Origin: Zygnema cylindricum
Taxonomy: Eukaryota; Streptophyta; Zygnematophyceae; Zygnematales; Zygnemataceae
Assembly (NCBI GenBank): GCA_037447655.1
Contig: JBBHKE010002555.1
Span: 64,001-128,000 of the forward strand
Reading direction: 5' to 3'
DNA length: 64,000 nucleotides
In this document: positions 4,307-62,009 of the stretch, in pieces
Numbering within the stretch: the first letter of the stretch is position 1
How the letters are laid out: each line of letters starts with the position of its first letter
Program-made: the position numbers and the translations under genes
Notes under the pieces: generated by a model
What the model was told of the DNA's origin: nothing
The model's database searches: none
Seen by the model: the letters and a program-made list of their open reading frames with translations, nothing else

Positions 4307-4309
4307 TGT

Positions 4310-15131: not shown

Positions 15132-15161
15132 GACAATCTCTTCTCCTTCCTCATCTTCATA

Positions 15162-27827: not shown

Positions 27828-28296
27828 ATGGCCATGGTTGGAGACTCCTGCAAACAAATTATTCGATTCGTTACCGTCTTCCTTATGCTCGCTGGTTTCC
27901 CTCGGGAAGTATTTGCTGTCGTGCCTCCTTCCCCAAAATATCCTCCGGCCTTTAGACAAAAGCTCCCAATAGGCAACGTGGCAAATCGATCATCAGGTGT
28001 GACACGAATAAAGCCGGCAGCATACAATTCAGGATGCACAGATCCTGTTTCCTGGCAAATGTTTACAGGAAGGGATTCCCCTGGGAATGATATAATAGGG
28101 TGGAAAATAACGAACTACCCCGGGGATGAAGGATATAAATTTTGTGCGAATGAATGCGCCAACGATTGCAGATGCAAAGGCTTCAATCTGTCGCCTAAAG
28201 TAAACTCCATCGAATAGTGTTGGTTGAAATTTTACGTCGAAGTGGGATCTCGGTTGGTAGTAAACAATGGTTTGGATTTGTTTGTGAAAAAAGCAG
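27828..28296 (+). CDS. Exon 1: signal peptide and PAN domain 1
   Basis: The signal peptide hydrophobic core [14 protein letters not shown] is followed by likely cleavage after REVFA. A Pro-rich spacer leads to an apple-like domain with the pattern C...[11 protein letters not shown]...........[22 protein letters not shown] at 28215-28217 stands where the paralogous exons read CAG (FGQCWLK). Past it the frame stays open for 26 codons ([19 protein letters not shown]) to a GT donor at 28297. The conserved post-stop sequence and the phase-1 donor show that the true exon runs through. Confidence 0.85.
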
Positions 28297-31200
28297 GTTA
28301 GCCTCTAGCATCTAAACCCGAGTTTTTCATTCTTGATAGGATCCAAACTATATGGGAGTGCACACAAACTGAAAATCACTCAATGGGGAAGCTTTATAAA
28401 CTCATATATAGGACATCAACAAATCACATCACATTCAATGGTCATATACACTCATATTATGTGGAGTCTTTTTTCATACATTGTCGTTCAAATGAGTCAC
28501 TCATTCAGAAGCTGGCGAATTAACTTAGCCGCAAATTGAATCTAACTCAATTTGAACGTAACACAAAAATTGAACCGCAAAACGACAATCTTGGATGCAA
28601 CGTAAACTTGACGTAAACAAAACAAAACGAAACCAACGGTGTACACGAAACGAAACGTACACGCAGAAAAGTACCACCGAAATATAATCAAATAAAATGA
28701 GTGACGTCACGCGCGACTGAGCGTACCCGCACTATTTAAGAATGAACATAAACAAATTTGTTAGGTTCAATGTTGAAAATAGGCGGTCCGCAGATTTTGG
28801 CAATGTTTTGGTTCGCGTGGCGCGATTCGATTTCGAGTTTGATTTCGCGATTTGCATCGCAAAATTGACATTTACATGGTTTTAAGAGTTTTTGCCTGGC
28901 AAATGGATTTTTAAAATTGAATTGGCACTGACAGTGACATTGACATTGACATTGAAATTGAAATTGACATTGACATTGAAATCGCAAAAAGACACATTTC
29001 AATGTTGAAAATAGGCGGTCCGCAGATTTTGGCAATGTTTTGGTTCGCGTGGCGCGATTCGATTTTGAGTATGGTCTCGCGATTTGCATCGCAAAGTTGA
29101 CATTGACATTGAAACTGTCATTGATATTGACATTGACATTGACATTGAGATTGGCACTGACAGTGACATTGACATTGACATTAAAATTGACATTGACATT
29201 GACATTGACATTGAAATTGAAATTGACATTGACATTGACATTGACATTGACATTGACATTGAAATTGATTCCGCACATTACGCAACCTAATAATTCGTTT
29301 CACGTTAAGATTTATCCGTCAACCTGTATAGTTTGTACACATGACAATTGTCACCATTGGTGACGGTGACGTTTTCAATCGTGCAATTTAAACAAATAAC
29401 GTAAAAGTGCGATTTTTGTTGCTTTTGGAGGCGAAGACTAAAAACAAGGCGCTACGTCTGATGGCGCAACTTCCCGCAATGCTAAAAGCAGGCTCTGATG
29501 GAGTCCACAGTCACTGTTCATGATTGTCCGCGTACTAGTCCTTAAGTCGACAATAAGAACCCAAAACTTACAATTTGTGTCTTGTTGAGTAGCGCTAGAG
29601 GTTTACACGACAATTTACAAACAAATCAAGGTTTTTTTGACAGAGCTAAGTTGGTTGTGTGAACGCCTGACCATGAAAAACCAGTGAAAAGGAGTCCAAA
29701 TTGTACACTTTGTTTGGAAACTCGAATTTGGTACATGGATACCCTGAACTCGGTATATTTACTTTTTCTTTTAGTTTTTGTATGTTTTTATTTGGCATTG
29801 TTTCACACTCTAGGTTATGGTGTTATGATGCTGGCTAAATTTTATTTTTGTGTTCACAAACTCTTAACGGTTCAAGATTTTGTGCTTGTTGTCTTTGCTT
29901 GGAGATCTACTCACCTTATACTTGGTACATAAAGATAGTTAGCCGACGCTGATTTTACAGCCCCGTTTTTTTGCCATGAATGCTTGCAACGCCCCATGGT
30001 TTTTAAGTGTTTTCTTTTTACAAGTTTTTGCCCTATGGGTTTTCCACTGTGAATACTCACAACAGCCTAACAACTGTCAACGGTGCTATTTTTTGACAGT
30101 TCTAGTCTTACATAGTGTTCAGTTAGAAAAAAAATCTATCTATGGCTGAAATGATTAGTTTTTTGTTTTTTGCATTGTTTTGATAACAATGTGACATATA
30201 CTAATGGTCAAAAGTCGTAAATTGATTAAAAAATCCAAATATCTCCATTTTCTCTGAAAGAAGATGCTTTTTTTCATCTCCGTTCTTCAATCGAATTCCT
30301 CACTAGCGAATGTTGTGCTCTGTTGTAAGAAGAGAATCCAACTAGATGTCTTTTCCTTTCTTCTACAATTAAGCTGACGCACACACATTGACAAGATTAA
30401 AACAATTGTCAAAGGGTGTTTTGAGGGAATTGCTATACATTTGTTGTACCAATAAACTATTGCTCAAGACTATATGATATAAAACTTACTATGCAGTGTT
30501 GAAAGCATGAAGTAATCTGTTATCAAGAACTAACTTCCCATAAACATTGGTGTGTATGATTCAGTATGCACAGAAAACGTTGCTTGGCAGAAGTTTGCAA
30601 AGAAGGATTCGCCTGGGAATGACATCCAAGGGTGGATAATTTCAAGCCTTAGCTTAGGCGATGCGTGGAACTACTGTGCTGGTGTATGCGGCAAAGATTG
30701 CAATTGCAGAGGTTTCAATTTGTCACCTTCATTCGGACAGTGTTGGCTCAAGTATTCCATTGACGTGGAATCTAAGCTGACAGATACCGCTGATTGGGAT
30801 TTGTATGTCAGACCTCGTAAGCCTCTAAACCCTAATTTCTCATTCCATCATGTACAAATGTGCCCGTTCTTGTTTTGCTTGTCACATGATTAATTTTTGC
30901 TATTTGTACTGTTTTGGTCATGCTGTCTTGCGTCTTCATGGTCAACCAGATATGTTCAATCGAATTTTTCTTATTGTGTCCACTGCCCAATGGAGATTGC
31001 TTTTGAGAGATTTTGTACTTATACAAAAATCTCATTTCCGAGCTTGCGTTGCTCTGCACTATCTTCAAATTTGATGTGGGACGCCTCAGTTAATCTCGTA
31101 CTATCGGTTCGGACCTTGGCTATGACATTGCCATGATTTTTTGATGTTTACGAAAACCAATGTCATGTTGTTGAATGAGGTCATATGAGAACATTTTTCC

Positions 31201-34200
31201 ATCGAAAGCACAAAAACGTACATTCAACAGTTTCTTGCTTGTTAGGAGACCTGGAAAACCTTTAGGGAGGATAATTTTTGATTACCAACCATATTAACCA
31301 AACTAGCTGTATAACTATCAGATTTGGCGTTTCCGATATTAAATGTCAGGGTTTTGGACATGTGGGCGATTATGCCTAATCTTTGTAGGGTTTGTTAACA
31401 TCCCAGACTACTCCAAAAAGCAGGTTCTCTTAAGGATTATAAAATTTGAAGGTCGAGCTTGTGACCTATTGTGAATCAACGACCTTTTAGAAATTTGGCT
31501 ACTCCACATGTCCACATGTACATGTGGATAGATGGGCATTCATTTAACAATTCATTAAAAAATAGAGAAAAGCTGGTCTTTTCATGTTCCATAGGATCTA
31601 TTGGTTTTTTTTAGTATGTTAATGTAACTCTTTTCATAAACATATGGCAGTATGCTGGCTGCTAAAATATTCCTCTTATTAACAAACTGACACGTTTAAC
31701 TCAATAATTGCCCAAATTACTCAAAAGTGGAGTTAGGAATGAACCTAAAAGATGGGAATGATTTCTCTCTGTAGCATTTCTGGAGGTCCACATGGTCTTG
31801 TGATGGATGCCATGCATTTATTATTGTTCGATGTGGACCAACTGTATCTTCTCAAAGAAGTGCACAAAGTGCTTAACGTATTTTCAAGTATAGTTAATGT
31901 TTAGTTAATGTTTTGCTCTCGCTGTTGAGTACACCAAGAATTGTTTTGAGGGTTAGTGATAACATTGCAACGCGGGTGTGTTGTCTCTCCTCCCACTTCC
32001 TCTACTACCTCCACCTCTCCCTCCCCTTCTCCCGCTCTATGTACAGTAGGATTGGATGTGAGTCCATGGACATCTCCGAGCTCAGGACCACTTTCAGTAA
32101 TTCCCTCCCTTTCCTACAATACCTGGTCGGCTCAAACATCCGTGATGAACAAGGAGCTCTTATTCAGCTATACTATTGTAATGCTTTGACATTGACATTG
32201 ATCATCCTAACAATTCCGTCAACGTTAACATTATATCCGTCAACCGGTATAGTTGGTGCACATCACCATTACGTTTTCAATCGTGCTATGTAAAAAAAAT
32301 AACTAAAAAGTACGATTCTTGTTTTTTCTGGTAGCTAAGACTAAAAAAGGCGCACGCTGCAATTTTAAATGTTTTCTGTGAACGGAGCTACGTGCGACGG
32401 GTGCACCCTCACAACAATGGAAAATATAGGCTTCTTTTTTGGAGTCCACAGTCACCCTTGATGACTGTCCGCGTTTCAGTCCTTATGCCTACCACAGGAA
32501 TCCAAAACCTACATGCTTTTTCTTGTTGAGTAGCTCTAGAAGTCCAAATTCACGACAAGTTTCAAACAAGTCAGCTTTTTCTCGACAGTATGTCGGTTGG
32601 CATGTCCGCCTGACCATGAAAAACGAGTCAATGTGAAGCCAAATTGTAAATTCTGTTTGGAAACCTTTATATTCGGTACATGGATGCCTTTAACTTGGTA
32701 GATTTACTGTTATTTCCAATGTATTTATGCTTTTATATGGCATTGTTTGATACTCTAGGTTATGGTGTTTTAATCTTTGCTAACTTTTCTTTTTGCGAAT
32801 TTTTTTTCCTAACCCTTCTCATTCCAAAACAGTTTAAGATTGTGTAATTGTTGTCTTTCTTTGGAGCCCATATGTTTATTCTACTCACCTTCTATTTGGT
32901 ATACAAAAATAGTCAGCTAAGGTGATTATCTTAGCCACTTCTTTTGTCATGAATGCTTGACTTTCAAAACTTTAGAAAAGGGTGCATTTTGAAGGTTGAC
33001 GAACAAAATATTTTGCCGGTTTTTATTTTTGTTGTTGTATCAGTATTGGAGGTTTCCCGACGCTCTTTGGTGTTTTAAGTTTTTTCAAACTATTACCAAG
33101 AACTGACTTGTCAAAAACATTGGGGTCTATGATTCAGTTTGCACACAAAACGTCGCTTGGCAGAAGCTTGTACGAAAAGATTCGCCTGGCTATGATATAC
33201 AAGTGTTTACAATTTCAGGCCTTAGCTTGGGCGATGCATGGAACTACTGTGCGGGTTTATGCGGCAAAGATTGCAGTTGCAAAGGCTTCAATTTGTCGCC
33301 TATATTTGGACAGTGTTGGCTCAAGTATTTCATTGAAGTGGAATCTAAACTGACAGATACCTCACATTGGGATTTGTATGTCAGACCTCGTAAGCCTCTA
33401 AACCCTAATTTCTCATTCAATCATGTACATGTGTACCAGTTCTTGTTTTCCATGTCACATGATGAATTCCTGCTATTTGTAATATCTTGGCCCCGTCAAC
33501 TAAATTTGTTCAATCAAATATTCTTTGTTGTTTCCATTGCCCAATGGAGATTATTTAACTGATGGCTTTTGAGAGATTTTGTACTTTTACAAAAATCTCA
33601 TTTCCGAGCTTTCGTTGCTCTGCACCTACTTCAGATTTGATATGAGATGCCTCAGTCAATCTCGTGCTTTCGGTTCTGACCTTGGCTATTGACATCGTCA
33701 TGGTTTTTTGATTTTTACAAAAACCAATGTCATGTTGTTGAATGAGGTCATAAGAGAGCATTTTTGTATCGAAAGTACAAAAGAGCACATTCAACAGTTT
33801 CTCGCTTGTTAGGAGACCTGGAAACCCTTTAAGGAGAATCATTTTTGATAACCAACCTTTTAAAAAAGTTAACTGTATTAATATCAGTTTTGGTGTGTCC
33901 GATAAGAAATTTCAGGTTTTTGGCGATTATGCCGAATCTTTGTAGGATTTGTCAGCATTCCAGACTGCACAAAAAAAAAGTTCTCTTAAGGATTAGAAAA
34001 GCCGAAGGTCGAGCTTGTGACCTATTGTGAGCCGACGATCTTTTAGAAATTTGGCTACTCCACTTGTCGTCATGTACATGTGGATAGATGAGCATTATTC
34101 TAACATTTCATTTAGAAACGAGGGAGAAGCTGGTCTTTACATGTTCCATAGGATCTCTTCGTTTTGTTGATATGTGAATGGAACTTTTTCCGTAATCATA

Positions 34201-37200
34201 TGGCAGTATGCTGGTTGCCAAAGTATTTCTCTTATTAACAAATTGACACTTTCAACTCGATTTTTGTCCAAATTACTCAACATGTGAGTTCGGAATGTAC
34301 CTAAAAGGTGGGAATGCTTTCTCTCTGTAGCATTAGTAGAGGTCCACATGATCTTGTGATGGATTCCATGCATATTTTATTGTTGAATGTGGACTAACTG
34401 TACCTTCTTAACAGAGTGGCACAAAGCGCTTAACGTGTTTTCAAGTACAGTTAATGTTTTGGTGTTGGTGTTGAAGTGCACCAAGAATTGCTCTGAGGGT
34501 TACTGGTATTATTGCAATGCCGGTTTGTTGTCTCTCCTCCCACTTCCTCAACCTCTGCCTCTCCCTCCCCCTCTCTATCTCTATGTACAGTTGCAGTGGA
34601 TGTGAGTCCATGGACATCTCCGAGCTCAGGACCATTTTTAGTAATTTCCTCCCTTTCCTTCAATGCCTGGTCGGCGGAAAACAACCGTGATGTGCAAGGA
34701 ACTCGTATTCGACTATACAATTGTAATTCTTGAACTTTTTTCTCCTGTTTTGACAATACTTTATTATAGATTTTAACGCAATCACACATTTAACTTTTCT
34801 CCCTTATGTTGACATTTCCTTTGTTACTAGTTATGTACAATTGAAGTGTTTGAACTTTTTATCCCTTTCTTGGATTCCTTTTGTTATAGGATTTTCTTAA
34901 TTGCAATGTATGTTCATTGTTTTTCTTATGTTGGCATTTCCTTTGATAATGGTTTAACATTTCTTTTGTTATATACATTTCAGAATATCTATTTCTTATG
35001 TTGACATTCCTTTGCATTTAGTTATGCACAATTTTTACATTTGATTTTTTAATTCGTATGATGACATTTCTTTCTTATTAGCTATTAACCATTGTAATAT
35101 TTGATCTTTTATCTCTTGTTTGTGAATTAATTTTATTTATATATTGCATGGGTCCGGTTTATGTACATTTTTCATCGACATTCTATTTGTTGACAAGTTC
35201 TTCCTTTTTTTCTTTCGATATAACAGTTTTTGGTTCTTCTAAGACAACATTGTGCAGTGTAAGTTGTATTTTTAGTTCTTCCATTTTCTCTCGACAACCA
35301 TTTTTGATTTTCTGCTGTTTGACATTCCTGTTTGAGATCGTTTTTCTTTCTTCTGTTTCGTTTTTATTGGGGTGTTTGTGATGAACACTGTCCATTTTTC
35401 CTTTTTTTTTTAATATTTTTTTTTGGCTTCTCTCTTCTTTGGACAGATCCCAATGGTTTTGATAACAATGTCGGAGGACTTTGGAGCGTCGTTGCTTATA
35501 ACGGCTATTATTATTTTCAACAGAACACGGGGAAATGTCTTTCGGTTTCGTCCAGTGATTTGGGATCAGAGGTGATTCTTTCAAGTAAGTGTTTTATGTA
35601 TTTTTCAATGTTCAAGTATTTTCCAAAGTATTTTTCCTAGTCCATGTAAATTTATTATTTATTTTTGGCTTTGTTCAATCGCAGTCAATATAGAAATTTT
35701 GGATTTCCCTTCCTTTATTTTATTTTGTCGCCTCATGAAAATGTTTATTAGGGATCTACTTTATTGAACGTATCTGGTCGTGTTCGACACAACAATTTGT
35801 CACACATTTGAAGCTCCTTTTTTTTTGTAAATGATAAAGCCATCAATGTCCTTATTAAGGGGAGGTAAAATTAGGGTCTGGATGATAAAAACGAGTATGG
35901 ATAAGCTTAAAATATCTAAGATGAATAATTTTAGTCAAAACGTATTTTTTTTCCCGTCTGAACTACCACCCTGCTCTTCACCTCTACCTCAACCTCTAGG
36001 TTTACCTGTACCGGCCCATCTCTCACTTAGTGAATTTAGCTCCGCGATTTGTGCCTACATTTAAATTTCCTTGACTTTTAGACCCTTCGGTAATACTCTC
36101 TATTTTTTTCAATCGTTTTCAAGTAACTGCCGGCGAACCCATAAGTAGTTTTTTTCCTTGAGATCTGGTTCATATGTACTAACTTATGTTTCATGTGCAC
36201 TAACGTATCTTGTCTGGTTACCATTTAAAAAAAATTAAACCTTTTTACTATCTTCAATTATCTTTCCATGACTACACAACTGCTCAAGCAATTAGTTTAA
36301 CCATTTAACTCTATCATCAATTGACTCATTTGTTCAAAATTTAAAGTAATAAATCCTAATGTTTAATAGCTATCTTTTCCTTCTCCATCGGCAAACCAGT
36401 TATCTCACAAACATCAATTTCACACCTAAATCACCGTAAATCTTCACCATATCCTTTCCTTTCCCATTCTTTTGCGTAGCAATAATATAAAAGGGCACTT
36501 TGCACCTAAATCTCATAGTAAATATCTCCCGCTTTCATTCTTCTTTTTTCAGATTGCAATCGTGACGATAGCCAACTTTGGGCACCGATTTATTCTACTA
36601 CAGAGACAGAATCTGGAACCCAATGGCAAAATAAAATGTCAGGGAATTGTATTGATGGACAAGGTGGCGGAATTGGAGATTGCGTAATACAGTGGACATG
36701 CAAATCGGCCAATGATGGGAGTATTTGCAATCAACTATGGTTACCCCAAGCCAAATCTTCAGCAAATGCTGATTCTTGTGTGTAACCATTTAAACTCCCG
36801 AGGACATTACCATTTTAAACCTTAAAAATCCTAAAAAACATGCCATCTACAAGTGTTTTTCCATCTTTGACTTTTTGAGCTTGCTTATTGGTTACTCTAT
36901 TTTTTTAACACTATCTAGGAGCCTCTCTTTTGTTGAAAACGCTTACATTACTTTTTTTGTATGTCTTTCGAATGTCTTTAAATACAGCTGAAAACCCTTC
37001 AATCAAAGTTTCTTTTTTTACAGTTGTGGAACATTCTATTTCTTATATTGTTTTTTTCCATTTTTTAATGAACAGCGCCCTCGGGTCTCTCTGAATCAAA
37101 AGATCCTATTGCAATAACCGCAACTTTGAATGTTTTTTCTCGACATTACAGTCAAATTACAAATCTTCCAGCTTCCGTCGATTGGTCGTCGTATTTTGGA

Positions 37201-40200
37201 CCAGTAAAGGACCAAAGCACATGCGGTAAATGGCTTAAATCCTCACTATTTTTTGTTCCTTGTAATGCATTTTTTATAGTTGCTTACTTTTAGGATACTT
37301 TGTGTGAATTGGCGTATCGGCCGGGTTCGTGCCAATATGTTTAGTTTGAGTTTCGTAAGATTGGCAGTATTTAATTTTTTTCTTGCGTAGGTAATGGTAC
37401 CGTGTGTCAGTCCAAAGCACGTTCTCTTTAGGTGGAACGTGTTTTGGTGGGCGTAACGTGTTTGTCCCGTAGTTTGTTCTCGATGTTCGTATGTTCTTTG
37501 TGAGTAGTGGAGAACATCCATGAGAGAGTTAATGCCTTGTACAGTTAGGTAGTGAGTTAGCAGTCTGGTTGCATAGTGAGAAGAATTCCAAGTCCAAAAG
37601 AACCTTTTTGATGTAAAAGGAACGTAAATAAGCACAGAAGTTATTTACGCAGGCGGAAGCATATAATTTATCATCATCACAGAAGCAAAGGAGGTCGGTT
37701 GATATGAATATATTCAACCGGAAAGTTTTCCTTACAACAGAGATTCACAAGTTAGAAAAAGTAATAAATATTTGATGCTCAAATTTTAGGTTTTATGGAC
37801 ACCTTTTTTTTGAAAAAATGTGCAAATCATCCGTATCAAGAATTCATTTTTTTTTGTGGTTGATTGTCGGTATTGACGTGCATAAAAAAAAGGGAGTGTC
37901 TGAATTTTATCTTTAAGTCAACTAAACTTTGTAATTTCACACCAGATATGTCATTAACACCGTCAATACAATCTAGAACTTCAAACATCAAAATTGCCAC
38001 TTTGAATTGTGAGCCACATAACTAAGAGAAAATTGTCAATCTGATCTTATCAATTTGGAAGCTTTGGTGTACAAACACATACTTGTTTATACCCCCTTGT
38101 GCCCTTTTTTCACAGGTGCATGTTCGATTTTTGCGGTTGTTGCTGCAATTGAAGGAGCATACAACATTTGGTTGGGTAAAAGTGTGAATCCCATCTTATT
38201 TTCGGAACAACAAATTTTAGATTGTTTTGGTTCTTGCCAAGGAGGTTGGGCCGAAGATAATCTTAATTGGTTGGCTTTAGAATCTGGAGGTCTCGCGACA
38301 CAAAATGATTATGGAGTTTACGAAGGTCAAAAATCCGGAGGTTGTAAGGTAGGATTTTTGTGTTTTTTTTCAGTTTTAGTTTCATTAATGCATTAAGTTG
38401 TTGGGTGAGTTTTCACTTTTTTGGTTTTTTATTTTTTCAAGGAATAGAAAGTTGTTTTGAGTATCTTGTCAGATAGGTCAGATTAGGTTCAGTAATAGGA
38501 AGCTGTATTGTGAGAAATTTCTGTGGGTTTACATGTATCTTTTTAGCTAGGCGCCATCCAAATAGTGGAGGTTTAGATGTTGCGTTGCCCGGTGAAAGAA
38601 ACGAGATACAATTCAGCATGTAAAAGACAAGCCAGGTGGAAAAAATAAAGTTAAAGACAGCTCCACTTGGTATAGCCTGTTTCTCAATTTATTTGGGAAA
38701 GAGACAAGTCACGTGAAAAAAAAACACGTGAAGAAAGACAATGAGTTACAAGATGCGACTCTTTTTATGTCATCTAGGCAGTAGACGAACGAGGTGAAAA
38801 AAATAGGCACACGATAGGACGCCACATGTAATAACCTATTTTCCTTTCGTTTTGTCATTTTGGAAATAGGCAAGCCAAGTGAAGGAAAAAGAGTTCCGAG
38901 AAATGATCTGACGTGTTATAACCTGTAATTTATTTGTCTTCGGCATCTGGGAAACATAAAACCCGGGTGAAAAACACAGGAAGGCACGAAGTAACATTCG
39001 AAATGTTAAAATTTTTTTCTTAGTCATCTAAAAAGTAAACAAGGGAGGTGGAAAATCCATTCATAGCTATAAAATATCCTTATACAAATTATAACTAGTT
39101 TTTTTATTTGTCGTAACTATTCTTGGAAACAGGCATACCTACCAAAAGAGGTGGACGTTACACGGTACGAGCTGACTACGGCCCAATCTGATTCCACACT
39201 AATGTCGGTATTAAGTCGCCAGCCGGCCGTCACAGCCATGGTGTTGACGGACGCGTTCATGGCATGGAAAGGGGTAAGAGGGAGAGGGAGAGGAGGAGGG
39301 GGAGGGGGAAAGGGAGGGGGAAAGGGAGGGGGAGGGGGAGGGGAAGGGGGAGTGAGAAGGGGAGGGCGAGTGAAAGGGTGAGGGAAAGGAAGGGAGGGAG
39401 GGAGGGAGGGAGAGGGAGAGGGTGAGGGAGGGAGGGAGGGAGGGGAGAAAGAGGGAGAGGGTGAGGGAGAGATAGCGGGAGGGTGGGAGGAGAGAGAGAT
39501 GGAGAGGTAGTGAGAGAGATAGCGGGAGAGGGAGAGGGAGGGGGAGAGGGATGGTCAGGGAGGGAGGGGGGTGGGAGAGGGAGGGGGGGAGGGGGGGAGG
39601 GGGAGGGGGAGGGGGAGGGGGAGGGGGAGGGGGAGGGTGAGGGGGAGGGGGAGGGGGAGGGAGAGGGAAAGAGGGAGGGGGAGGGAGAGGGAGAGAGGGA
39701 GGGCGAGAGAGAGGGCGAGGGCGAGGGCGAGGGCGAGGGCGAGGGCGAGGGCGAGGGCGAGGGCGAGGGCGAGGGCGAGGGAGAGGGCGAGGGAGAGGGA
39801 GGGGGGTGGGAGAGGGAGGGAGGAGGGAGGGAGAGGGAGGGAGGAGGGAGGGAGAGGGTGGGAGGGGGGGAGAGAGGGTGGGAGGGGGAGGGGGAGGGGG
39901 ATTGAGGGGGAGGGCGATGGAGAGGGAATGGAAGAGGGAGAGGGTGGAGGAGATAGTGGGAGAGGTAGAAAGAGATCTAGAAGGGGAAGGAGTAGGAGAA
40001 GTCGTAGGAGAAGGGGAATGAGGAGGTGAAGGAGAAAGATTTTGGCAAGGAGAAGGAGAAGGAGAAGGAGAATGAGACTGTGAAGGAGAATGAGGAGTAG
40101 GAGAAGGAGAATGAGAAGGAGGAGGAGGGCAGGACAGACTGGTTGTGATTGTGGTTGTTATTGTTGTATTTTTGTTGTTGGTGTTTTTATTATCCTTATT

Positions 40201-43200
40201 GGTTTTATTATCTACATCGTTATTGATATCCTGTTGTTACAATTATTGTTATTTCTATCATCACTATTATTGTGATTATCATTATCATTATTGTCATCTT
40301 TTAACTTCTTCTTGCTTTTTTTTTTCTTTTGTTTTGTATAGTGGAATATCTTCACAGATTCTCGAAATGATTGTCAAATTGATTCACAGTTGAACCATTT
40401 CGTGACGCTGGTTGGATACGGTACAGAAAATGGTGTTCCATATTGGATTATTCGCAATTCATTTGGATCTGGTTGGGGTCAAAACGGGTATGGGCGAATT
40501 AAAAGAGGAATATGTGGAGTTAATTCCCTTCCATCTTCATACCCAGTTATCGCAGGCAAGCTTCGTGATCTATTTGTGAAAAATAATACATTTTCGTGTG
40601 AAGAATTTTTCCAAAATTGTAATCGCTATTATTAGTATTGTAATCGTGATTAATATTATTGTTAGAATCCTTCTTATTGTTATTATTGTTTTTATTGTTT
40701 TTATTGTTGTTATTGTTGTTATTATTACTAGCGTTTATATTATTATAGCTATTATTGTTATTGTTATGGTTATTGTGGTATTGTTATCATTATGATTCTT
40801 GTGAATATTGTTGTTATTGTTATTTCTGTTATTTTTGTTGTTATTGCTAGTATTACTATAATTACTATAATTACTATCACTACCTTCTTCAGTATTGGGT
40901 GCTATCAGTACAATTATTGTGATTATTATGACTTTTTACTATGTTTTTTATTTATTACAATTACTGTTTGCTATCGTTATTATCATCTATTATTACTATT
41001 GTTGTTGTCCTTACTTTTAACTTTGATGCTCTTCTTATTTTAGAACTATCTGTTTTTTTACTACTCTTTTGATCATTATTTCTAACTGTTATTGTTTGTT
41101 ACAAGTCTACATTGTCGGCATGTTTTAGTGATACTTTCGTTGTTTACTATCAATTTAAGTTTTTCAAAAAAGCTTGTTGTCAATAAATGAAGAACCGGAA
41201 TTCTATGTTTTTCGGATTCATAATGTGACATTTTAATCCAAGACTTAGGCCCTCTTTCTCTCACACTACCTCTCGCTCTCCCCCCCTCCCTCTTTCTACT
41301 CTCTTCCTTCCTCACTTTCTCTTTCTCCTTTCTCCTTGCCCCTTCCTCTCCCTCCCCTCCCTTTCCTGCCTTCTTCTCTCTCTTCCTTTCCCTTTTTCCC
41401 TTCGTCCTTTCAATATAACTTAGAGTTTTTTTTTTTCTTTGGTGCAGCTCCTGACAACAAAGCATGTAATGCCAAAATCAATCCGTGTGGATCGGGAACA
41501 TGTGTTCCCTCTTCCCTTCCCTTCCCAAATTCTTACACGTGTAGATGTACGGCTAAGGGCTACATTACTGTGAAAAATTCCGACAAAACCGAAACGTGTG
41601 CCCTTCGTAAGTATTTTGCATCTTTAAATTCATTTACATGTGAGCTTTGTATATGTATATGATATATATTTTAGCTGTGGGCGTTTCATTCTTTTTTTAA
41701 CCTTGTTTGTCATTTATGCCAACGCCCATTTATGTTTCATCTTTTAGCCTTTCACTTCTATTGAAACTTTGGGTATCCTTATTCCTGAACCGTTGTACAC
41801 ATTTTATATCGATACTTGTACGTCACTTATGTTTAATTTAAGTTTATACATTTATGTTCTAACTTTGTATGCCATTTGTACCAAATGTTGGTATATCATT
41901 TATATTTGAGATTTGGGCAAACGTTTACGATAAACCTTTGAAACATTTTTATTTGAACTGTGTAAATCATTTATATGTAAGCACTGTACGTTAAATTGAG
42001 GATTATTAAACGTTCCACATTTACTATTCCTCGGTGTTTTTTTTTTCGATATTTGTCAAATCATTTTTTTAGAGCTATGTATTCCTTCTAAACATAAACT
42101 CAGTCTTGGACGTTAGTTTTCTCATCAGTACATCTACTTCTAGAAATAGTGTCAAATTACCTTACTTTTTAAGCTTGATTATTCTTTCCACTCTAACCCT
42201 CCTATAAGAAACATAAATGAAGTAGTAGAATGTATGTAATTATTTTACTTTTTTTGTTTTCCAATGCTAAATGAAATGTCATCGTTGTTTGTAGAAAACC
42301 ATTTTTTGTAGTTTGTTTTTGTTTTCTTTGTTTTCGGTTCTTGTTTTTAAATGTTGTTATCGTCTCTAAACAAATTTTGTTTCATTTGTTGGTTATCCTT
42401 GTTTTTTCTTTGCAGTCGATGTGTGCTCTTCCACCGGGTATAATCTGTGCGGTGCCGGATCTTGTGTCAATGATGGCAATGGGTATTACCATTGTGTTTG
42501 TTTGCGTGGGTATATAATGTCTATTAACAACAGAGGAAAACCCATTTGTGCCCCACGTGAGTACTTTTCAAAACCACGTATGATTCCATTTATTGCATAT
42601 CTTTTTCTCACATATATACTTAAGAACAATGATAAAAACTAATAAGTCTAGTTTAAGCAGTCAAAGTCCTAGTCAAAGATGAATCAATAAAATCCTGAAG
42701 TTAAATTTTCATTTTCTTTTTTTAGTTCGCATTCAGGCCTTAATTCTCGAGTATTTTCTTGTTATACGTTTTCGCTCTCGTCTTCTTAAGACCTTTGTGA
42801 AAGAACATGGTTGGTACTGATGTGTTTGTGAGGAGCGTTGACAAAAAAAGGATATTTCTAATTTCAACGTAAATTTTTGCAGCGGTGGATGCTAGTTCGA
42901 CTGTACCACAAACGTACACAGTAGTTCCGGGCGACAGTTGTTATGTTATTTCTTATTCTTTCGGATTAACTATTCCACAGCTTCTAAATCAAAATACGAA
43001 CATACGCGGGGTAAGTATTTATTTTCTTGAAGTTTCTACGCCTCTCATGACTAATACATTCCTAGACTATCATTTAGAACTTAACTCTGTTGTTAGCTAA
43101 TCCCTCCTATGTACATTTTTTTCCATTTGATGTGCACTTTACACTAACCCATGTGTTGTAGTGAAAGGCTTCACCTCATTCATTTAAAAACTCGTTACCT

Positions 43201-46200
43201 TGATTCTTTTTTAATGTGGATGTTGTTGATAACAGTTAGTTGATGAGCAATTATATGTAGATCGGATTAATCTTGTCTTTCCGGATTTGCTAGTTGGGAA
43301 GTTTTGTAAATCCGAATTTGTCTTCAATAAGAAATAGGATCACAACTTAAAAGAAAAAGGAAGTGCAACCCAACCACTTTTTATCCATGTTTGTTGTTGG
43401 GAATTTTCCGCAACACGCTAATTTTTTGGTTCCAATCTCTACGATGTGTACATAACTTCCAAATATAGTATTGTTACATTAATTGACTATTTTTTTCAAT
43501 TTATTAAATGCCACTTTTTTTATTGTTTCTATGTAGAATCTCTGCAATAACTTACGGAGCGGAGATGTTTTAAAAGTTGCAAATCCCGGGGCAAGCTCTT
43601 GCAAAGTTCTGTACAGCATTCAAATTGTAAGTATAGCTCACAAGATTCACAAACATTTATTTATATAACATCGTTATACCCATAATTTGTAAATTTAACA
43701 TCATGGGTATTTATTGCAGTTTTAACTTTGCTTTTTGAGCACAAAAAAACAAGTACACAAAAAAGCTTATCGTGGAAACGCAACGTATATTTAATCTACT
43801 TTTTCGAATTGAAACAAGTATTTTTCTTTTTTTTATTATTTATTTATCCTTTTTTTTTTTGAATGGCTTACGTGATTGAGGGTGGGAAATCTCAGATTTT
43901 TATGCTCCCTCACTTTCTGTTGAATTTCATGTCCTTTTGTGTTCCCCTTGTTTAAGTGGTATTTTTGTCTTGAATTTCCTTTCTATTCAGGGAGATACTT
44001 GTCCCAAAATTGAAGCAGCATTTAATCTCAAGGCAAACTCTCTCTATTCATTGAATCCTGGACTTAGTTGTTCACTCGGGTTTTCAGGGGGCTTTCCTTT
44101 GGGAATTCAACCCGGGCAACAGGTAAAGAAAAGTAAAAAACACATAAAAAAACAAAAAGGAAGTCAAAAGACAATCTACTAAACAAAAAATAAAGTGTGG
44201 AAGGAAAGCTTTCAGAATGATATCATTTCTAGGGAAAATATCCTTCCAAAACATTAGAAATATCATTATAAAAAATAAAACCCTCGTGAAAGCTCGGATA
44301 AAAAAAACTAGTGCAAATCCTAACTCTATGTCCGAAAGATCTACAAATCCTAAAACTGAAAAAGCCCCGATGAAATAAACTACAGTCCTTTCAAATAGGG
44401 AGTTGAGTCGGCGGGAATCCGTCCACCTTAAGTAGCAGGGATGAACTAACAATATAAATGGGAAATCTGATGTGCATGTCAAATTATGTAGGAGGAGCTT
44501 ACATTTTTTTTTTCTTTTTCATGAAAATATTGGTCCATAGAAAATGAACTGCATTTTGACCTCATAATATTATCATGTAATTTAATCCATAATAAAATGT
44601 TTGACCGATCTTTATGTTCTATTCTTTGTACACCTTAGAATGATCCAATTACTAATGCTTAATCACAATGCAATTTTTTTATGTGTTTGAGCCTTATACA
44701 ACTACACCGCCAATCGTTATTAGCGTGTAAGTTTTTTTAGCGTATACGAATAATTAGCGTGGTTTACGCTAATTGGGAATTTGAAAAATTTCGAAGAAAT
44801 CGTCTATTCTAATTAGAAATTAGGGTTTTTTTTAAATAATGTGGATAATTCTATTTGAGAATAAAAAAAAAAAAAGCGGGACGGAATTAGCGTACACAAC
44901 GCTAATAAAGATTGGCGGTGTAGAGAACGAAATTCTCACTTTATGCCACAAATCCTTTTTATTTCGGCATTGTAGAATGTTAAGAAAAAAACGGAAAGAT
45001 CTCCTAGATAATGACGCTTGGGTGAACTTTTTGTTAACATTTAGACCCCTTTATAATGCAAGTTTCATGTTTTTGTACGCCTACTTGAAAGGTTCAAAAA
45101 ATGTACGGCTGTAAATGTAATTTCTTGAAATTCTAAGAACGGAAATGTGTTAAATTGTGCAGATTTGCATTCAAAAAGGGACTCCAGATCCGACCAAAGT
45201 ATGTAATCAAGTCGCTTACGTGCAAGAAAGTGATAGAAGGAGTAGTTCTCCATGCGATTCGATTCGGGCAAGAACGACAAAAATCTCTCGACTCGACTTT
45301 TTTGAAATCAACCGAGGCATCAACTGTGGAAAGTTTTATGTGGGACAAACGGTAAAGACAACATGGAAATGTTTTTTACACATTTCGACATAAAGTGCAA
45401 ATAATAAAAACTTGAGTAAACGAGACACCTGTTACAAATTTATGTATAAGAACTCTTGTGGCTCCATGATTTTACTTTCTATAATTTTTTGTTTCGTATT
45501 TTTCTTTTGAGATGCTTTTATCAAATCAGATCAAAAAGAGAAAAGAAAGAGAGGTAGAGGGAGGGGAGGAAGGGAGGGAGGTAGGGAAGAGAGGGAGAGA
45601 AGGAGATAGCTGGCGAGGGAGAGCGAGGGAGAGGGAGAGGGAGAGAGAGGGAGAGGGAGGGAGAGGGAGAGGAAGGGAGAAGAGAGGGAGAGGGAGAGGG
45701 AGAGGGAGAGGGAAAGGGAAAGGGAGAGAGGGAGCGGAATGGAGAGGGGAGGAAAAGTGGGAGAGAGGAGGAGAGGGGGAGACAGAAAGAAAGGGGAGGC
45801 AGAGGCAGAGAGGAGGGAGAGGGAGGGAATGGAAGGAGCCGAGGGAGAGGAGGCAGACGAAGAGAGGGAGGCGGAGGTAGAAGCAGTTGGCTCATGCAGA
45901 GACAGTGGCAGCGTGGGAAGGGGGGGATGGGGAGGGGAAGGGGAAAGGGCTTGTGAGATGGTGAAGGAAAGGTTGAGGAAGAGAGGAAGACGGGGAAGGA
46001 AGAGGACGAGGGGGAGGGGGAGGAGCAGCGCTGCCTAACTGAAATTTCATTGTTTCCTTTTTGTTAATTTTTGCAGGTATGTGTGGCCTCTCAGAGCGTC
46101 CCTCCCTCAGCTTGTAAGCCGCACTACAAGTGGAAAAGAACTGACACGTGTAATTCTGTAATATCCGCGTTTTGCGGATCGAGATCACGTTCGTCGTGGA

Positions 46201-46328
46201 AAGCTTGTATGGGGAAAAACGCCGGGTCATGTGTAAAAGGTGGATCTGATTGGGCCATCGGAAGAATTATATGCCCTAAATCTTGTAAAAATAATAAGGG
46301 AAATCAAGTGGCAGGGTGTGTTAAATAG
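27828..46328 (+). CDS. Secreted PAN-lectin-papain-EGF-LysM chimeric protease
   Basis: 16 exons: 27828-28296, 30565-30816, 33138-33389, 35447-35584, 36553-36777, 37076-37225, 38116-38348, 39133-39273, 40342-40555, 41448-41606, 42416-42556, 42883-43010, 43537-43626, 43991-44122, 45163-45351 and 46077-46328. All are GT-AG except one GC donor (40556), and every phase fits. They total 3,165 nt, about 1,054 residues. Order: signal peptide (1-30), PAN/apple (70-155, 157-240, 241-324), ricin-type trefoil (325-445), C1A protease (about 480-690), EGF-like (692-744, 745-791), LysM (about 800-975), Cys-rich tail. The likely role is an extracellular or vacuolar cysteine protease tethered to glycans. Codon 130 is TAG (28215-28217), so as given the full product cannot be made. 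The start ATG has A at -3 and G at +4. The gene model is my inference from splice signals, without transcripts. Confidence 0.85.
28297..30564 (+). other. Intron 1 with duplicated block
   Basis: Contains two copies of 'caatgttgaaaataggcggtccgcagattttggcaatg' (28769-28857 and 29001-29097), each followed by a hexanucleotide (GACATT) tract. The remainder holds no gene. The region from about 29245 onward is the first copy of a tandem duplication. Confidence 0.6.
28925..29270 (+). repeat. (GACATT)n microsatellite in intron 1
   Basis: Long runs of gacatt with gaaatt variants, densest at 29100-29268. Long ORFs on both strands here (Asn-Val, Asp-Ile or Ser-Met alternations) are artefacts of the hexamer. 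Confidence 0.95.
29245..32186 (+). repeat. Tandem duplication unit 1 (PAN exon 2)
   Basis: Starts at the end of the (GACATT) tract and ends before 'ttgacattgacattgatca' at 32187. It matches unit 2 in order: 'atccgtcaacc.gtatag', 'cgcctgaccatgaaaaa', the PAN exon, 'tgttgtctctcctccc'. About 2.9 kb. Confidence 0.75.
30565..30816 (+). CDS. Exon 2: PAN domain 2
   Basis: 252 nt, phase 1 at both ends. [20 protein letters not shown], then [33 protein letters not shown] and DWDLYVRP. Six or more Cys in an apple-like spacing. About 80% identical in protein to exon 3. Confidence 0.88.
32187..34735 (+). repeat. Tandem duplication unit 2 (PAN exon 3)
   Basis: Second copy of the 2.5-2.9-kb unit, ending near 'ctatacaattgtaattcttgaac'. 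Exon and flanking intron sequence were duplicated together, which is why even the intron text (for example 'gcatttctggaggtccacatg' against 'gcattagtagaggtccacatg') is shared. Confidence 0.75.
33138..33389 (+). CDS. Exon 3: PAN domain 3
   Basis: 252 nt, phase 1-1. [66 protein letters not shown]. The same length and boundaries as exon 2. Open throughout. Confidence 0.88.
35447..35584 (+). CDS. Exon 4: ricin-type lectin, first part
   Basis: 138 nt, phase 1-1. The motif [20 protein letters not shown] resembles the start of a beta-trefoil lectin subdomain (CLxV followed by a polar turn). The acceptor is preceded by a strong T-run. Confidence 0.7.
36553..36777 (+). CDS. Exon 5: ricin-type lectin, second part
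   Basis: 225 nt, phase 1-1. It reads [11 protein letters not shown], then [20 protein letters not shown] and NQLWLPQ. Two Q-L-W and one I-Q-W match the (QxW) signature of ricin B-type trefoils. With exon 4 this gives about 120 residues, a nearly complete trefoil. Such domains usually bind galactose or GalNAc; binding here is inference. Confidence 0.75.
37076..37225 (+). CDS. Exon 6: start of papain-like domain
   Basis: 150 nt, phase 1-1. [20 protein letters not shown] leads into CG. This is the mature N-terminus of C1A proteases (LPxSVDWRxxGxVTPVKDQGxCG) with the oxyanion-hole Gln (residue about 492). The usual I29 inhibitor propeptide (ERFNIN/GNFD) is absent; only about 38 linker residues precede it. 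Confidence 0.88.
38116..38348 (+). CDS. Exon 7: catalytic Cys segment of papain domain
   Basis: 233 nt, phase 1 to 0. [20 protein letters not shown], then [18 protein letters not shown] and [15 protein letters not shown]. The catalytic Cys (residue about 498, codon 38121-38123) is kept, but the CWAF of papains is CSIF, losing the conserved Trp. SEQQ-DC and CxGG blocks are typical for C1A. Confidence 0.9.
39133..39273 (+). CDS. Exon 8: middle segment of papain domain
   Basis: 141 nt, phase 0-0, flanked by AG (39131-39132) and GT (39274). [20 protein letters not shown], then [19 protein letters not shown] corresponds to the papain block (VxIxxYxxVPxxDExxLxxAVAxQPVSVAI). It also corresponds to the length missing between exons 7 and 9. 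The donor is followed at once by the G-rich tract. Confidence 0.8.
39274..40130 (+). repeat. Polypurine/G-rich microsatellite in intron 8
   Basis: About 850 nt of almost uninterrupted purines with many G runs of 3-8 (ggggga, gggaga, gggcga units). It contains a perfect (GAGGGC)n stretch at about 39714-39780. It is transcribed on the sense strand. Long Gly/Glu/Arg ORFs here are artefacts. Confidence 0.95.
40140..40320 (+). repeat. (TTATTG)-type pyrimidine-rich repeat in intron 8
   Basis: Degenerate 'gttattgttgtatttttgttg' and 'ttatcattattgtcatc' repeats, resumed in intron 9 at 40610-41050. Confidence 0.8.
40342..40555 (+). CDS. Exon 9: catalytic His/Asn segment of papain domain
   Basis: 214 nt, phase 0 to 1. 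[20 protein letters not shown], then [20 protein letters not shown] and [12 protein letters not shown]. Catalytic His is residue about 639 (40396-40398) and Asn about 659 (40456-40458). NSWG is NSFG here. The exon must end at 40555 to keep phase 1 for exon 10, giving the donor AG|GCAAGC. Confidence 0.9.
40556..41447 (+). other. Intron 9, probable GC-AG type
   Basis: Begins GCAAGC after exon-final AG, matching the strict consensus of GC-AG introns. No GT donor nearby gives the needed phase. The interior is (TTATTG)-type repeats followed by a CT-rich run before the acceptor. Confidence 0.65.
41448..41606 (+). CDS. Exon 10: EGF-like domain 1
   Basis: 159 nt, phase 1-1. [17 protein letters not shown], then [15 protein letters not shown] and ETCAL give six Cys in EGF order (C..C..C....C.C....C). 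Confidence 0.85.
42416..42556 (+). CDS. Exon 11: EGF-like domain 2
   Basis: 141 nt, phase 1-1. [44 protein letters not shown]. Six Cys with EGF spacing. Similar in layout to exon 10, so probably a duplicate. Confidence 0.85.
42883..43010 (+). CDS. Exon 12: LysM 1, first half
   Basis: 128 nt, phase 1 to 0. [20 protein letters not shown], then [12 protein letters not shown]. The YTVVPGDSC start and the N-xN loop are classic LysM. Confidence 0.9.
43537..43626 (+). CDS. Exon 13: LysM 1 second half, LysM 2 start
   Basis: 90 nt, phase 0-0. [18 protein letters not shown] closes LysM 1 (the usual L..G..L.V). CKVLYSIQI is the first strand of LysM 2. Confidence 0.85.
43991..44122 (+). CDS. Exon 14: LysM 2
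   Basis: 132 nt, phase 0-0. [20 protein letters not shown], then LNPGLSC and LGIQPGQQ. This is the LysM core (GDTC..I...F......L..LNPG..C). Confidence 0.9.
44705..44920. mobile_element. TA-target MITE copy 3 in intron 14 (216 bp)
   Basis: CACCGCCAATCGTTATTAGCGT at the left and its inverse at the right, bordered by TA (44703-44704, 44921-44922). It is in the same orientation class as 25584-26123 and nearly identical in interior to the 20460-20669 copy reversed. It lies inside the host gene but away from splice sites. Confidence 0.9.
45163..45351 (+). CDS. Exon 15: LysM 2 end and LysM 3
   Basis: 189 nt, phase 0-0. ICIQKGT closes LysM 2. [20 protein letters not shown] is followed by [18 protein letters not shown]. 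The IN.GINC....VGQ.VC ending is typical of plant-type LysM with Cys; the first strand is more diverged. Confidence 0.8.
45535..46020 (+). repeat. Polypurine (GGGAGA)n tract in intron 15
   Basis: About 485 nt of A/G-only sequence on the sense strand, very like the intron 8 tract. The ORFs on both strands here are low-complexity artefacts. Confidence 0.95.
46077..46328 (+). CDS. Exon 16: Cys-rich C-terminal tail and stop
   Basis: 252 nt with TAG at 46326-46328. [13 protein letters not shown] completes LysM 3. The following about 70 residues contain eight Cys ([40 protein letters not shown]) and no family I can name; a disulfide-rich secreted tail. Confidence 0.85.
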   Translation, partial: VCVASQSVPPSACKPHYKWKRTDTCNSVISAFCGSRSRSSWKACMGKNAGSCVKGGSDWAIGRIICPKSCKNNKGNQVAGCVK

Positions 46329-59801: not shown

Positions 59802-62009
59802 TAAACTGCAATCCTATCCTTTTATCAGTTAGTATACTTCTGGACATATCTCTTAAAGTTTTATTTACTCTTTTTCCTACTCCATTTTAATTTGAATAAT
59901 AACGAACCGTTTTCTTATAATAGATTCCTTCTTCTTTGAGAAATTTTTCAAATTCCCTTGAGGTGTATTCTTTCCCATTATCACTTTTTATCTCTTTTAT
60001 TGAGGTTTGATATAATTTTTCACTCCATATTTTGTATTCGTTGAAACATCTTAGTACCTGTGACTTATGTCTAAGAAATTATACCTTAGTGTATCTAGAC
60101 CAATGAAATTATACCTTAGTGTATCTAGACCAATCATCTGTAAAGGTTAGCATCCATTTTTCCCCCCATGTGAAGCATACCTAGCTGGTCCCCAAACATC
60201 AGTGTGAACTAGATCTAATATTTTTTCTCTTCTAAATGTGGATGCCTTTGGGAATGGGAGTTTATGAATCTTCCCTTGGGCACATCCACTACAATCATAT
60301 GAGATCTCATCATCTCCAAACTCAATTCCATCCACTATTACTTTTTTATCATTTTTTTTAATCTATCTAGATGCACATGACCCAACCTTTTTTGCGAAAG
60401 CATCAAATCATTTTCAGACGAGTAGAGAACACTCTTTTCATAGCAAAGTACAACTCTGAACATTCTTTGACTACCTTTTTCAGCTATGAAATAAACCTCA
60501 TTATCAAAGCTAACTTTGAAGATTCCTATCTTAGTTCCTGTTTCGAACTTTTTTTCATCTAGAACAGCTATAAAAACTAGATTTTTCCTAAGCAATGGAA
60601 TATAAAGAACAATTAAGAGTGTTACAATTGTAGCCGTTCCATCAACTAAAAGTTTTAAATCAACCGATCCAACAAGACTTGTGGTTTTTACTCTACCATC
60701 TCCGTACTCTATCTCAACTGTTGGAGTTTCCCTCTATTTAGTAAACCACCTCTTATCCTTGCACATATGCATTGAGGCTCCCGAGTCTATAATCCACCCA
60801 TTTTCATGTGGATCCCTCTTACCTCCAAAAGCACACTTCTGTCTCCTTGGAATGTTGAAATGCTTCTCAGTGGTTTTCCGATTAAAGACAAACTCCTCAA
60901 GCTCCTCTTCTGGTTTGGTTAATTTATCTTGTTCTTCGTCATGAACCTGATTCAAAAAATCCTTTTTCTTTCCTCCATCTCTTGAGGAACCTTGTCAATC
61001 TTTTAGCTAAAGATCTCCAAGTTTGACATAATTTGCCATATAATGTCTCGGTTTCTTGTAGAGGTGACATAGTCCACCCCGAGGAGCTCGTTTCCCTTGT
61101 TGATCAAATCTGCCACCTCCTTGTCCTCTTCCTCCAAAGTTTCCATAGGGATCCTTTCCCTTTTCCTCATCACGCTTCCGCTAATCAGATCTGCAGCCAA
61201 TGCTTGAACACTTAGACTTCCTCACCTAAGTTCTATGGTACTCTCTTTCACTTAAATCATCCCCACTATATCATCCCATTTCGAATTGCTATCACCTAGA
61301 TCCTACAACCGATTAATGATATTCACATACTTTTCAGGTAGTTTCGTTATCAATGTAGTTACTCTTTGTCTCTCAGACCATGAGTTACCTATGCTCTCTA
61401 TTTCTCCAAATAATGCTCCTACGTTATTACAATAATTATTCATACTTCCTCTCTTGTAAGTATAAGTTAAAATCTTATTTTCAGCCAGTTTGTTGCTACT
61501 GCAATGACCACCTGTTATATTTGTTTAGAAGAGATACCCAAATATGAGAGAAAGATCAAACATGCATAAAGGAAATGGCAATACCCTTCACTACACTTTT
61601 GAGTATTAAGTGCTTAGCAACCTTTTCCTTATAGTTTCAATTTTCATATTCTGATCGGTCAGTCTGACTCCTTGTCACCATTGTTGGTGGTGATGCTGCC
61701 GATATCGTCCTTGACAATGGAGTCCCACGAGAAGCAACTTCTCTTTTTTCTCCTTCCATTATTATTTCCTCTCGTTCCTCGTCATTGTTCGTGATAATGG
61801 TTGATGTTCGGGTAGCTGTTGTGACGGATGTGGTGATGGAGGTGCCAAAAAAACGTGTTTCTCCAAACCTATGTGAAGGTGGGCATCGAATTTGTCCGAA
61901 CACTATGCCCCATAGGTGTTTTTCAAAAAGTTCACCATCCATCATCATTTTCCAATAAAGAAAGTATTATCCATTAAATATGGGCACCCTAGAGGGTTGG
62001 CCCATAACC
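59802..62009 (-). pseudogene. Truncated Copia family A copy: gag, protease, part of integrase
   Basis: Minus-strand sister of element A, colinear with 13205-15372. Visible: gag MMMDGELFEKHLWG (about 61948), knuckle counterpart near 61040-61080 (damaged), protease IIDSGASMHMCKDK (about 60740-60800), integrase LSQKRLGHVHLDRLKK and CSGCAQGKIHKLPFPKA (about 60210-60300), HTDVWGPARYASHGGK. Several stops. RT, RNase H and the 3' LTR are missing beyond 59802. A 30-bp tandem duplication (gaaattataccttagtgtatctagaccaat, about 60076-60135) breaks the integrase. The primer site reads GGTTATGGGCCAACC (61995-62009). Confidence 0.9.

What the first reader, a model, noticed from the sequence alone, without database searches (positions are those of the whole stretch)
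27828..46328. Unusual secreted protease: three PAN, ricin lectin, papain core, two EGF and three LysM domains in one chain
Seen: 16 exons joined by consistent phases give all modules in one frame, after a signal peptide. Known: LysM binds GlcNAc polymers, ricin-type trefoils bind galactose-type sugars, PAN domains bind proteins or sugars, and C1A enzymes cut proteins. Inference: a protease targeted to chitin-, peptidoglycan- or glycoprotein-containing surfaces, with possible roles in microbe defence, symbiosis or cell-wall remodelling. I know of LysM fused to chitinases and of papains with granulin tails, but not of this combination.
Basis: partly seen in the sequence, partly recalled or inferred. 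Interest (0 to 1): 0.88.

Follow-up and report, generated by a model that had tools for sequence, protein, structure and literature searches.

The report
Lectin-armed algal protease with premature stop
Seventeen predicted exons, probably from a streptophyte green alga, join into one frame for a papain-type protease carrying PAN, beta-trefoil, EGF and LysM modules; the protein is predicted to be secreted and would likely cut proteins on sugar-coated surfaces, but this copy has a stop codon in its first PAN module.

Summary
The module string is real, with three corrections. (2) A missed exon, 34591-34722 (phase 1-1), completes the beta-trefoil: 17 exons, 1098 codons. A decayed copy of it lies at 32047-32177. 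(3) PAN2 and PAN3 come from a ~2.56-kb tandem duplication and stayed under protein-level constraint (dN/dS 0.29). The protease keeps the papain Gln/Cys/His/Asn set. Three unnamed relatives (43% identity) join trefoil-type sequence, protease, EGF pair and LysM in single chains; no relative with the PAN front was found. The C1A-EGF-EGF-LysM core recurs in 12 relatives, the 8 named ones all Zygnematophyceae, with changing fronts (none, trefoil, hevein-like, legume lectin, LRR). C1A+LysM in green algae is already in print, so this is a new variant of a known kind. Likely role (inferred): glycan-targeted extracellular proteolysis in wall remodelling, wounding or defence. Whether this copy is expressed, mis-sequenced or dead is open.

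The parts
27828..28296 (+). E1: start codon, signal-peptide-like segment, linker, PAN1 (interrupted); leaves in phase 1
   Evidence: PAN_4 17.0 bits and PAN_2 16.0 bits on PAN1 alone, both below cut-off; signal peptide by eye
28215..28217 (+). In-frame TAG stop inside PAN1; both sister PAN copies have a sense codon in this column
30565..30816 (+). E2: PAN2, phase 1-1
32047..32177 (+). Decayed duplicate of the trefoil alpha exon inside intron 2, one base shorter than E4; including it would shift the frame of E3
   Evidence: tblastn of the window's own chain, 2.3e-07
33138..33389 (+). E3: PAN3, phase 1-1, 80% identical in protein to PAN2
34591..34722 (+). E4: missed exon, alpha repeat of the beta-trefoil, phase 1-1
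   Evidence: hit by relative P0002; ricin score rises 34.6 to 38.3 bits, profile start 40 to 22
35447..35584 (+). E5: trefoil beta repeat, start
36553..36777 (+). E6: trefoil beta end and gamma repeat; donor supported by relatives (SSPSGL junction)
37076..37225 (+). E7: linker and start of C1A, with oxyanion Gln
38116..38348 (+). E8: C1A with catalytic Cys (CGACSIF)
39133..39273 (+). E9: C1A, middle
40342..40555 (+). E10: C1A with catalytic His and Asn; donor is GC (GC-AG intron)
41448..41606 (+). E11: EGF-like 1, phase 1-1
42416..42556 (+). E12: EGF-like 2, phase 1-1
42883..43010 (+). E13: LysM1, first part
43537..43626 (+). E14: LysM1 end and LysM2 start
   Evidence: not hit by tblastn
43991..44122 (+). 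E15: LysM2
45163..45351 (+). E16: LysM3 (too divergent for Pfam alone)
   Evidence: family HMM 21.5 bits; none at E<=1 in Pfam
46077..46328 (+). E17: end of LysM3 and Cys-rich C-terminal module, partly LysM-like; terminal TAG
   Evidence: family HMM 9.8 bits over 23 residues; shared with P0001-P0003
30514..34680 (+). Tandem duplication: two units, about 2.56 kb apart, each PAN exon + intron + trefoil alpha exon
   Evidence: families D4-D9 and D14; 85.0% identity over 1186 intron columns

Best explanation
The locus holds seventeen predicted exons that join in one frame into a papain-family (C1A) protease with three PAN modules and a beta-trefoil before the enzyme and two EGF-like and three to four LysM-type modules after it; the protein is predicted to be secreted, the modules would likely hold it on glycan-bearing surfaces, and the enzyme would likely cut proteins there, but this copy carries a stop codon in PAN1. 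Shown: exon phases, domains, catalytic Gln/Cys/His/Asn, the duplication, the stop, and single-chain relatives of the trefoil-to-LysM part. Inferred: secretion; LysM binding of GlcNAc-type polymers (chitin, chitooligosaccharides, peptidoglycan or the alga's own glycans); trefoil and PAN binding of other sugars or proteins; activity without the usual I29 propeptide, which was not found; a role in wall/matrix remodelling at wounding, sexual reproduction or microbe contact. The gene belongs to a streptophyte-algal family with a constant C1A-EGF-EGF-LysM core and changing fronts; the PAN front was probably functional until recently, since PAN2 and PAN3 stayed under constraint after they duplicated.
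Against: The TAG in PAN1 means that the sequence as held encodes only 129 residues before a stop. No transcript, and no relative with the PAN front: one search gave no hit at E<=0.01 among 6013 candidates (but it also missed the trefoil relatives P0001-P0003, so its reach was short), and E1-E3 had no tblastn support from relatives. PAN1 and PAN2 each score below Pfam's cut-offs alone. LysM3 and the C-terminal module fail Pfam alone at E<=1. No I29 propeptide was found, so the activation route is unknown. The Trp that usually follows the catalytic Cys (usual state recalled) is Ser here and in P0001-P0003. C1A sequence alone does not unite the window's group with the Closterium/Mesotaenium group. 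No sugar or protein target was tested.
Confidence: 0.6

Rival explanations
1. This copy is a young pseudogene or a null allele: the stop in PAN1 ends translation and the transcript would be degraded; functional paralogues or alleles would exist elsewhere in the genome.
For: In-frame TAG 28215-28217. The code is probably not reassigned: 45 Gln codons of the gene are CAA/CAG, and the only other TAG is the terminal one; two copia ORFs in the window run about 700 codons open, with one stop between them.
Against: It is the only lesion in the 17-exon chain; its splice sites, phases and catalytic residues are intact, and in the part of PAN1 after the stop synonymous differences per site still exceed replacement ones (few sites), so inactivation, if real, is recent.
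Confidence: 0.35
2. The TAG is a base-calling or assembly error, or is removed from the mRNA (an 18-nt GT...AG stretch, 28200-28217, ends exactly with the stop; or an unrecognised first exon replaces E1), so the gene is intact in life.
For: The stretch 28200-28217 begins GT, ends AG and is a multiple of three; everything downstream is intact. Two hydrophobic, ATG-holding ORFs in intron 1 (29663-29932 and 29943-30149) could in principle supply another signal peptide; they were seen but not tested.
Against: An 18-nt intron would be far below the size range known to me for plants; the introns of this gene span 298-2321 nt in the 16-exon model. No alternative first exon was demonstrated, and T-rich introns readily give hydrophobic ORFs. 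The rest of the assembly could not be reached, and no reads are held.
Confidence: 0.35
3. Two neighbouring genes are being read as one: a PAN protein (E1-E3) and, separately, the trefoil-protease-LysM gene (E4-E17).
For: No relative found joins PAN to the protease; PAN exons lack support from relatives.
Against: All joints from E1 to E8 are in phase 1. The duplicated unit contains a PAN exon plus the trefoil alpha exon in the same spacing twice, so they were neighbours before the duplication. No stop closes E3 before its donor site. I saw no signal-peptide-like start just before E4 in the ORF list (by eye; not tested further).
Confidence: 0.15

Closest known systems
Peptidase_C1+LysM proteins of green algae (Chlamydomonas; Archaeplastida survey)
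   Same: Papain-family peptidase and LysM in one chain; reported as lost in angiosperms (PMC2728734 passages) and not kept in vascular plants (PMC6362431 section 12 part 1).
   Different: The text seen does not mention a PAN front or a trefoil+EGF2 arrangement with C1A; their sequences were not compared here, and the survey's supplementary table of architectures was not seen.
Volvox carteri pheromone-induced cysteine protease (VcPap-11; Amon et al. 1998)
   Same: C1A protease of an alga, induced by the sex pheromone (PMC2474614 passages). That it is also wound-induced and carries an extensin module and three chitin-binding repeats is recalled; the 1998 paper is not held.
   Different: No PAN, trefoil or EGF modules (recalled). 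Sequence not compared.
Zygnematophycean C1A-EGF-EGF-LysM proteins (Closterium, Mesotaenium) and unnamed assemblies P0001-P0003
   Same: Same core order; 46, 46, 46, 34 and 33% identity to the window over the core for the five relatives aligned, others near 30%; P0001-P0003 share trefoil-type sequence and the CSIF active-site motif.
   Different: Fronts differ: none named, hevein-like (weak), legume lectin, LRR+legume lectin. P0004 and P0010 lack the catalytic Cys, and P0010 also the His.
Oomycete lectin-fused secreted proteases (Saprolegnia)
   Same: Ricin-type lectin modules fused to secreted proteases (PMC3681718 passages).
   Different: Different lineage; no LysM-EGF tail mentioned in the passages seen.

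Membership tests
Papain family C1A | Peptidase_C1 domain with catalytic Cys-His-Asn and oxyanion Gln | tested here: met
   PF00112 8.3e-42; residues present
Papain precursors with I29 propeptide (cathepsin L/RD21 type) | Inhibitor_I29 propeptide before the enzyme | tested here: not met
   No I29 among the families listed at E<=10; the enzyme is preceded by the trefoil instead
Granulin-tailed papains (RD21 type) | C-terminal granulin domain | tested here: not met
   No granulin hit listed at E<=10; tail is EGF and LysM
Algal Peptidase_C1+LysM chains | C1 and LysM in one chain | tested here: met
   relatives in single ORFs
Algal Peptidase_C1+LysM chains | Common descent with the Chlamydomonas/Volvox proteins | not tested
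   no hit bearing those names was listed and their sequences were not fetched
Zygnematophycean C1A-EGF-EGF-LysM family (defined here) | Core order C1A, EGF, EGF, LysM with alignable sequence throughout | tested here: met
Zygnematophycean C1A-EGF-EGF-LysM family (defined here) | One clade on C1A sequence alone | tested here: inconclusive
   window+P0001-P0003 100/99; not united with the Closterium/Mesotaenium group, outer forks weakly supported
PAN/apple | PAN profile match | tested here: met
   PAN_4 34.1 bits and PAN_1 33.1 bits summed over three stretches of the chain (cut-offs 27 and 21.4); PAN2 alone 23.1/20.5 and PAN1 alone 17.0, below cut-off
Ricin-type beta-trefoil | Three trefoil repeats | tested here: met
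   38.3 bits (cut-off 29) with E4 included; three repeats and two QLW motifs by eye
EGF | EGF profile match | tested here: met
   PF00008 21.7 bits, cut-off 21.5, on the two-EGF piece, marginal; not listed for the full chain
LysM | LysM profile match | tested here: met
   63.4 bits on the full chain, 71.5 on the tail piece, cut-off 20.9; third and partial fourth with an HMM of relatives
Lectin/LysM receptor kinases | Kinase domain after the ectodomain | tested here: not met
   no kinase hit listed at E<=10

The most novel reading that the evidence does not exclude
Streptophyte algae keep a family of secreted proteases with a constant C1A-EGF-EGF-LysM core and swappable recognition fronts of the kinds that land plants carry on receptor kinases (PAN, legume lectin, LRR) plus trefoil and hevein-like lectins, with enzyme-dead members as possible decoys: a recognition system whose output is proteolysis instead of a kinase, and this locus is the first member seen with a PAN front.
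Probability: 0.3. Interest if true: 0.75.

Novelty: new variant of a known kind. Interest (0 to 1): 0.52.

Why it matters
It links a known but little-studied algal architecture (papain protease + LysM) to front modules that change from member to member, in the algal group closest to land plants. If the fronts set the target and the core cuts, these proteins would be a testable, pre-land-plant way of acting on microbes or on the alga's own wall, and dead-enzyme members would suggest decoy or scaffold roles. The locus also shows domain gain in progress: a PAN+trefoil exon unit duplicated, one trefoil exon decayed, and the first PAN interrupted.

Tried and rejected
Code reassignment (TAG as sense): rejected, since one internal TAG stands against 45 CAA/CAG codons and two copia ORFs are long and open. 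Inclusion of the decayed alpha exon copy: rejected, frame shift in E3. Donor choices for E6: of the GT sites around 36777 only the one after 36777 gives phase 1, and relatives fit the junction (by hand). Structure of the window's PAN3 (mean pLDDT 54) and of relative P0001 outside C1A (residues 1-183, with the trefoil, under 50): too weak to use; the fold search bears on the C1A part only. Search for relatives of the PAN+trefoil front: none at E<=0.01 among 6013 candidates of limited length; it did not recover P0001-P0003 either, so it is a weak negative. Paper searches, as listings: cysteine protease, LysM, Volvox: 1; Chara braunii, LysM: 8; papain, LysM, cysteine protease, algae: 3; Volvox, pheromone, chitin-binding, cysteine protease: 0; sex-inducing pheromone, wounding trigger: 5; PAN domain, LysM, ricin, cysteine protease: 0; Zygnematophyceae, LysM, peptidase: 15 listed of 908 holding at least two terms; PAN domain, papain, lectin, domain architecture: 1, oomycete; Closterium, cysteine protease, lectin: 2, titles unrelated. 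Prototheca passages (PMC7941945) name LysM and C1A proteins separately. Most subscription journals are not in that library.
Full report
Observation. The chain is not open: codon 130 is TAG (28215-28217), inside PAN1. In an alignment of the three PAN exons this column holds a sense codon in both other copies. The gene uses 34 CAA and 11 CAG codons, and its only other TAG is the terminal one, so a reassigned code is unlikely.

Missed exon. The exon 34591-34722 has AG and GT borders, phase 1-1, and extends the chain to 1098 codons. With it the Ricin_B_lectin match grows from 34.6 to 38.3 bits and starts at profile position 22 instead of 40, while the related RicinB_lectin_2 score falls slightly, from 29.7 to 28.2. 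P0002 hits this exon by tblastn. Of the 16 introns now, 15 are GT-AG and one, after E10, is GC-AG.

Duplication. PAN2 and PAN3 lie in two tandem units about 2.56 kb apart. The intron part between PAN and alpha exon is 85.0% identical over 1186 aligned columns. The first unit's alpha exon copy (32047-32177) is one base shorter and would shift the frame. Between PAN2 and PAN3 dS is 0.36 and dN 0.105 (ratio 0.29; Fisher p 0.0026 on rounded counts), so both copies were held to protein function after duplication. Between PAN1 and the others, synonymous differences per site also exceed replacement ones on both sides of the stop (0.40-0.56 against 0.28-0.32), though sites are few.

Enzyme. The C1A part matches Pfam at 8.3e-42 and solved plant papains (ervatamin B 1.1e-31; 174 solved sequences at E<=0.001). 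Gln, Cys, His and Asn are present. The residue after the catalytic Cys is Ser instead of the usual Trp, as in P0001-P0003. No I29 propeptide was listed.

Tail. Two EGF-like modules pass Pfam narrowly on the cut piece and are not listed for the full chain. Pfam lists two LysM stretches in the full chain and three in the tail piece, at E<=10. An HMM from ten LysM segments of relatives scores three in the window (24.6, 50.2, 21.5 bits) and a partial fourth (9.8 bits over 23 residues), in a search of four sequences. About the last 80 residues are shared with P0001-P0003.

Relatives. The whole-chain search gave 8 proteins at E<=0.001 among 3425 candidates, the core-profile search 35 at E<=1e-10 among 5477. 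I count 12 distinct relatives with the C1A-EGF-LysM type core: P0001-P0006 and P0009-P0014. The remaining rows are C1A proteins without this tail, LysM proteins without C1A, and a chimera (P0008). In P0013 the Pfam scan at E<=0.1 listed no LysM, and in P0014 LysM is below cut-off, so their LysM parts rest on the profile alignment. Eight of the 12 carry names, and all eight are Zygnematophyceae: seven Closterium and one Mesotaenium (class; that the label Mesen1 means Mesotaenium endlicherianum is recalled). Four are unnamed (P0001-P0003, P0010). From this I infer, without proof, that the window is from a streptophyte alga.

Fronts and dead enzymes. Pfam finds a trefoil in P0001 (29.0 bits, cut-off 25.6), a weak one in P0003 (15.2, below cut-off) and none in P0002, whose trefoil is seen by alignment only; a weak hevein match in P0002 (E 0.014, below cut-off); legume lectin in P0005 and P0011-P0014; LRR in P0005 and P0012; and no named front in P0004, P0006, P0009 and P0010. 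The automatic gene models behind these may err, and P0001-P0003 may be cut short at their starts. P0004 and P0010 have Ser in place of the catalytic Cys, P0010 also lacks the His, and P0003 has Ser for Asn. The patterns found no Cys motif in P0005 and P0009 and no Asn motif in P0006; by eye these residues are there.

Tree. On C1A alone the window joins P0001-P0003 with support 100/99, but this group is not united with the Closterium/Mesotaenium group (20 rows, P0005 left out, the P0006 row cut too wide). Common descent of the whole family rests on the shared core order and alignable EGF-LysM sequence, not on the C1A tree.

Literature. The passages read of PMC2728734 state that the peptidase domain with LysM in Chlamydomonas is peptidase_C1 and that peptidase+LysM was lost in angiosperms. 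PMC6362431, section 12 (part 1 of 2), reports C1A with LysM in Archaeplastida, not kept in vascular plants, and EGF with GNA or ricin-B lectins in chlorophytes and/or bryophytes. Passages of PMC2474614 mention VcPap-11 induced by the Volvox sex pheromone. Nine searches were seen as listings; of six papers I saw passages and of one of them also that section part. Nothing seen there described PAN with C1A and LysM.

Verdict. A multi-exon gene model whose trefoil-to-LysM chain is well supported by relatives; the PAN front is supported by phase, duplication and constraint but by no relative or transcript; the copy as sequenced is interrupted. New variant of a known kind, with function inferred.

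Noticed in passing
window 10959-15161 (-): Copia-type retrotransposon: gag, integrase and reverse transcriptase domains in two long ORFs separated by a stop.
   Followed up: partly
window 1830-5655 (+): Ty3/gypsy-type element in pieces: zinc knuckle, RNase H, H2C2 integrase, Tf2-1 SH3 and chromo domains.
   Followed up: partly
window 9234-9713 (-) and 60341-60733 (-): Further copia fragments (gag; Pol_BBD/pre-integrase).
   Followed up: no
window 39277-40128 and 45549-45828: Long purine-rich (GAGGGA-type) arrays inside introns of the gene.
   Followed up: no
window 28916-29268: Six-base TTGACA-type repeats (two arrays) in intron 1.
   Followed up: no
window 29663-29932 and 30149 (+), intron 1: Two hydrophobic ATG-holding ORFs (29663-29932, 29943-30149) that could be alternative signal-peptide exons or just T-rich intron sequence.
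   Followed up: no
P0005 (Closterium), 1336 aa: LRR, EGF-like, legume lectin, C1A, EGF and LysM predicted in one chain; its C1A start looks truncated, so the gene model needs checking (sequence).
   Followed up: partly
P0004 and P0010: Core family members with Ser for the catalytic Cys (P0010 also without the His): possible pseudoproteases.
   Followed up: partly
P0031 (Dictyostelium) and P0038 (unnamed): Other C1A proteins with extra domains (PF09478; PF01822) in the core-profile hits, recalled as carbohydrate-binding types.
   Followed up: no
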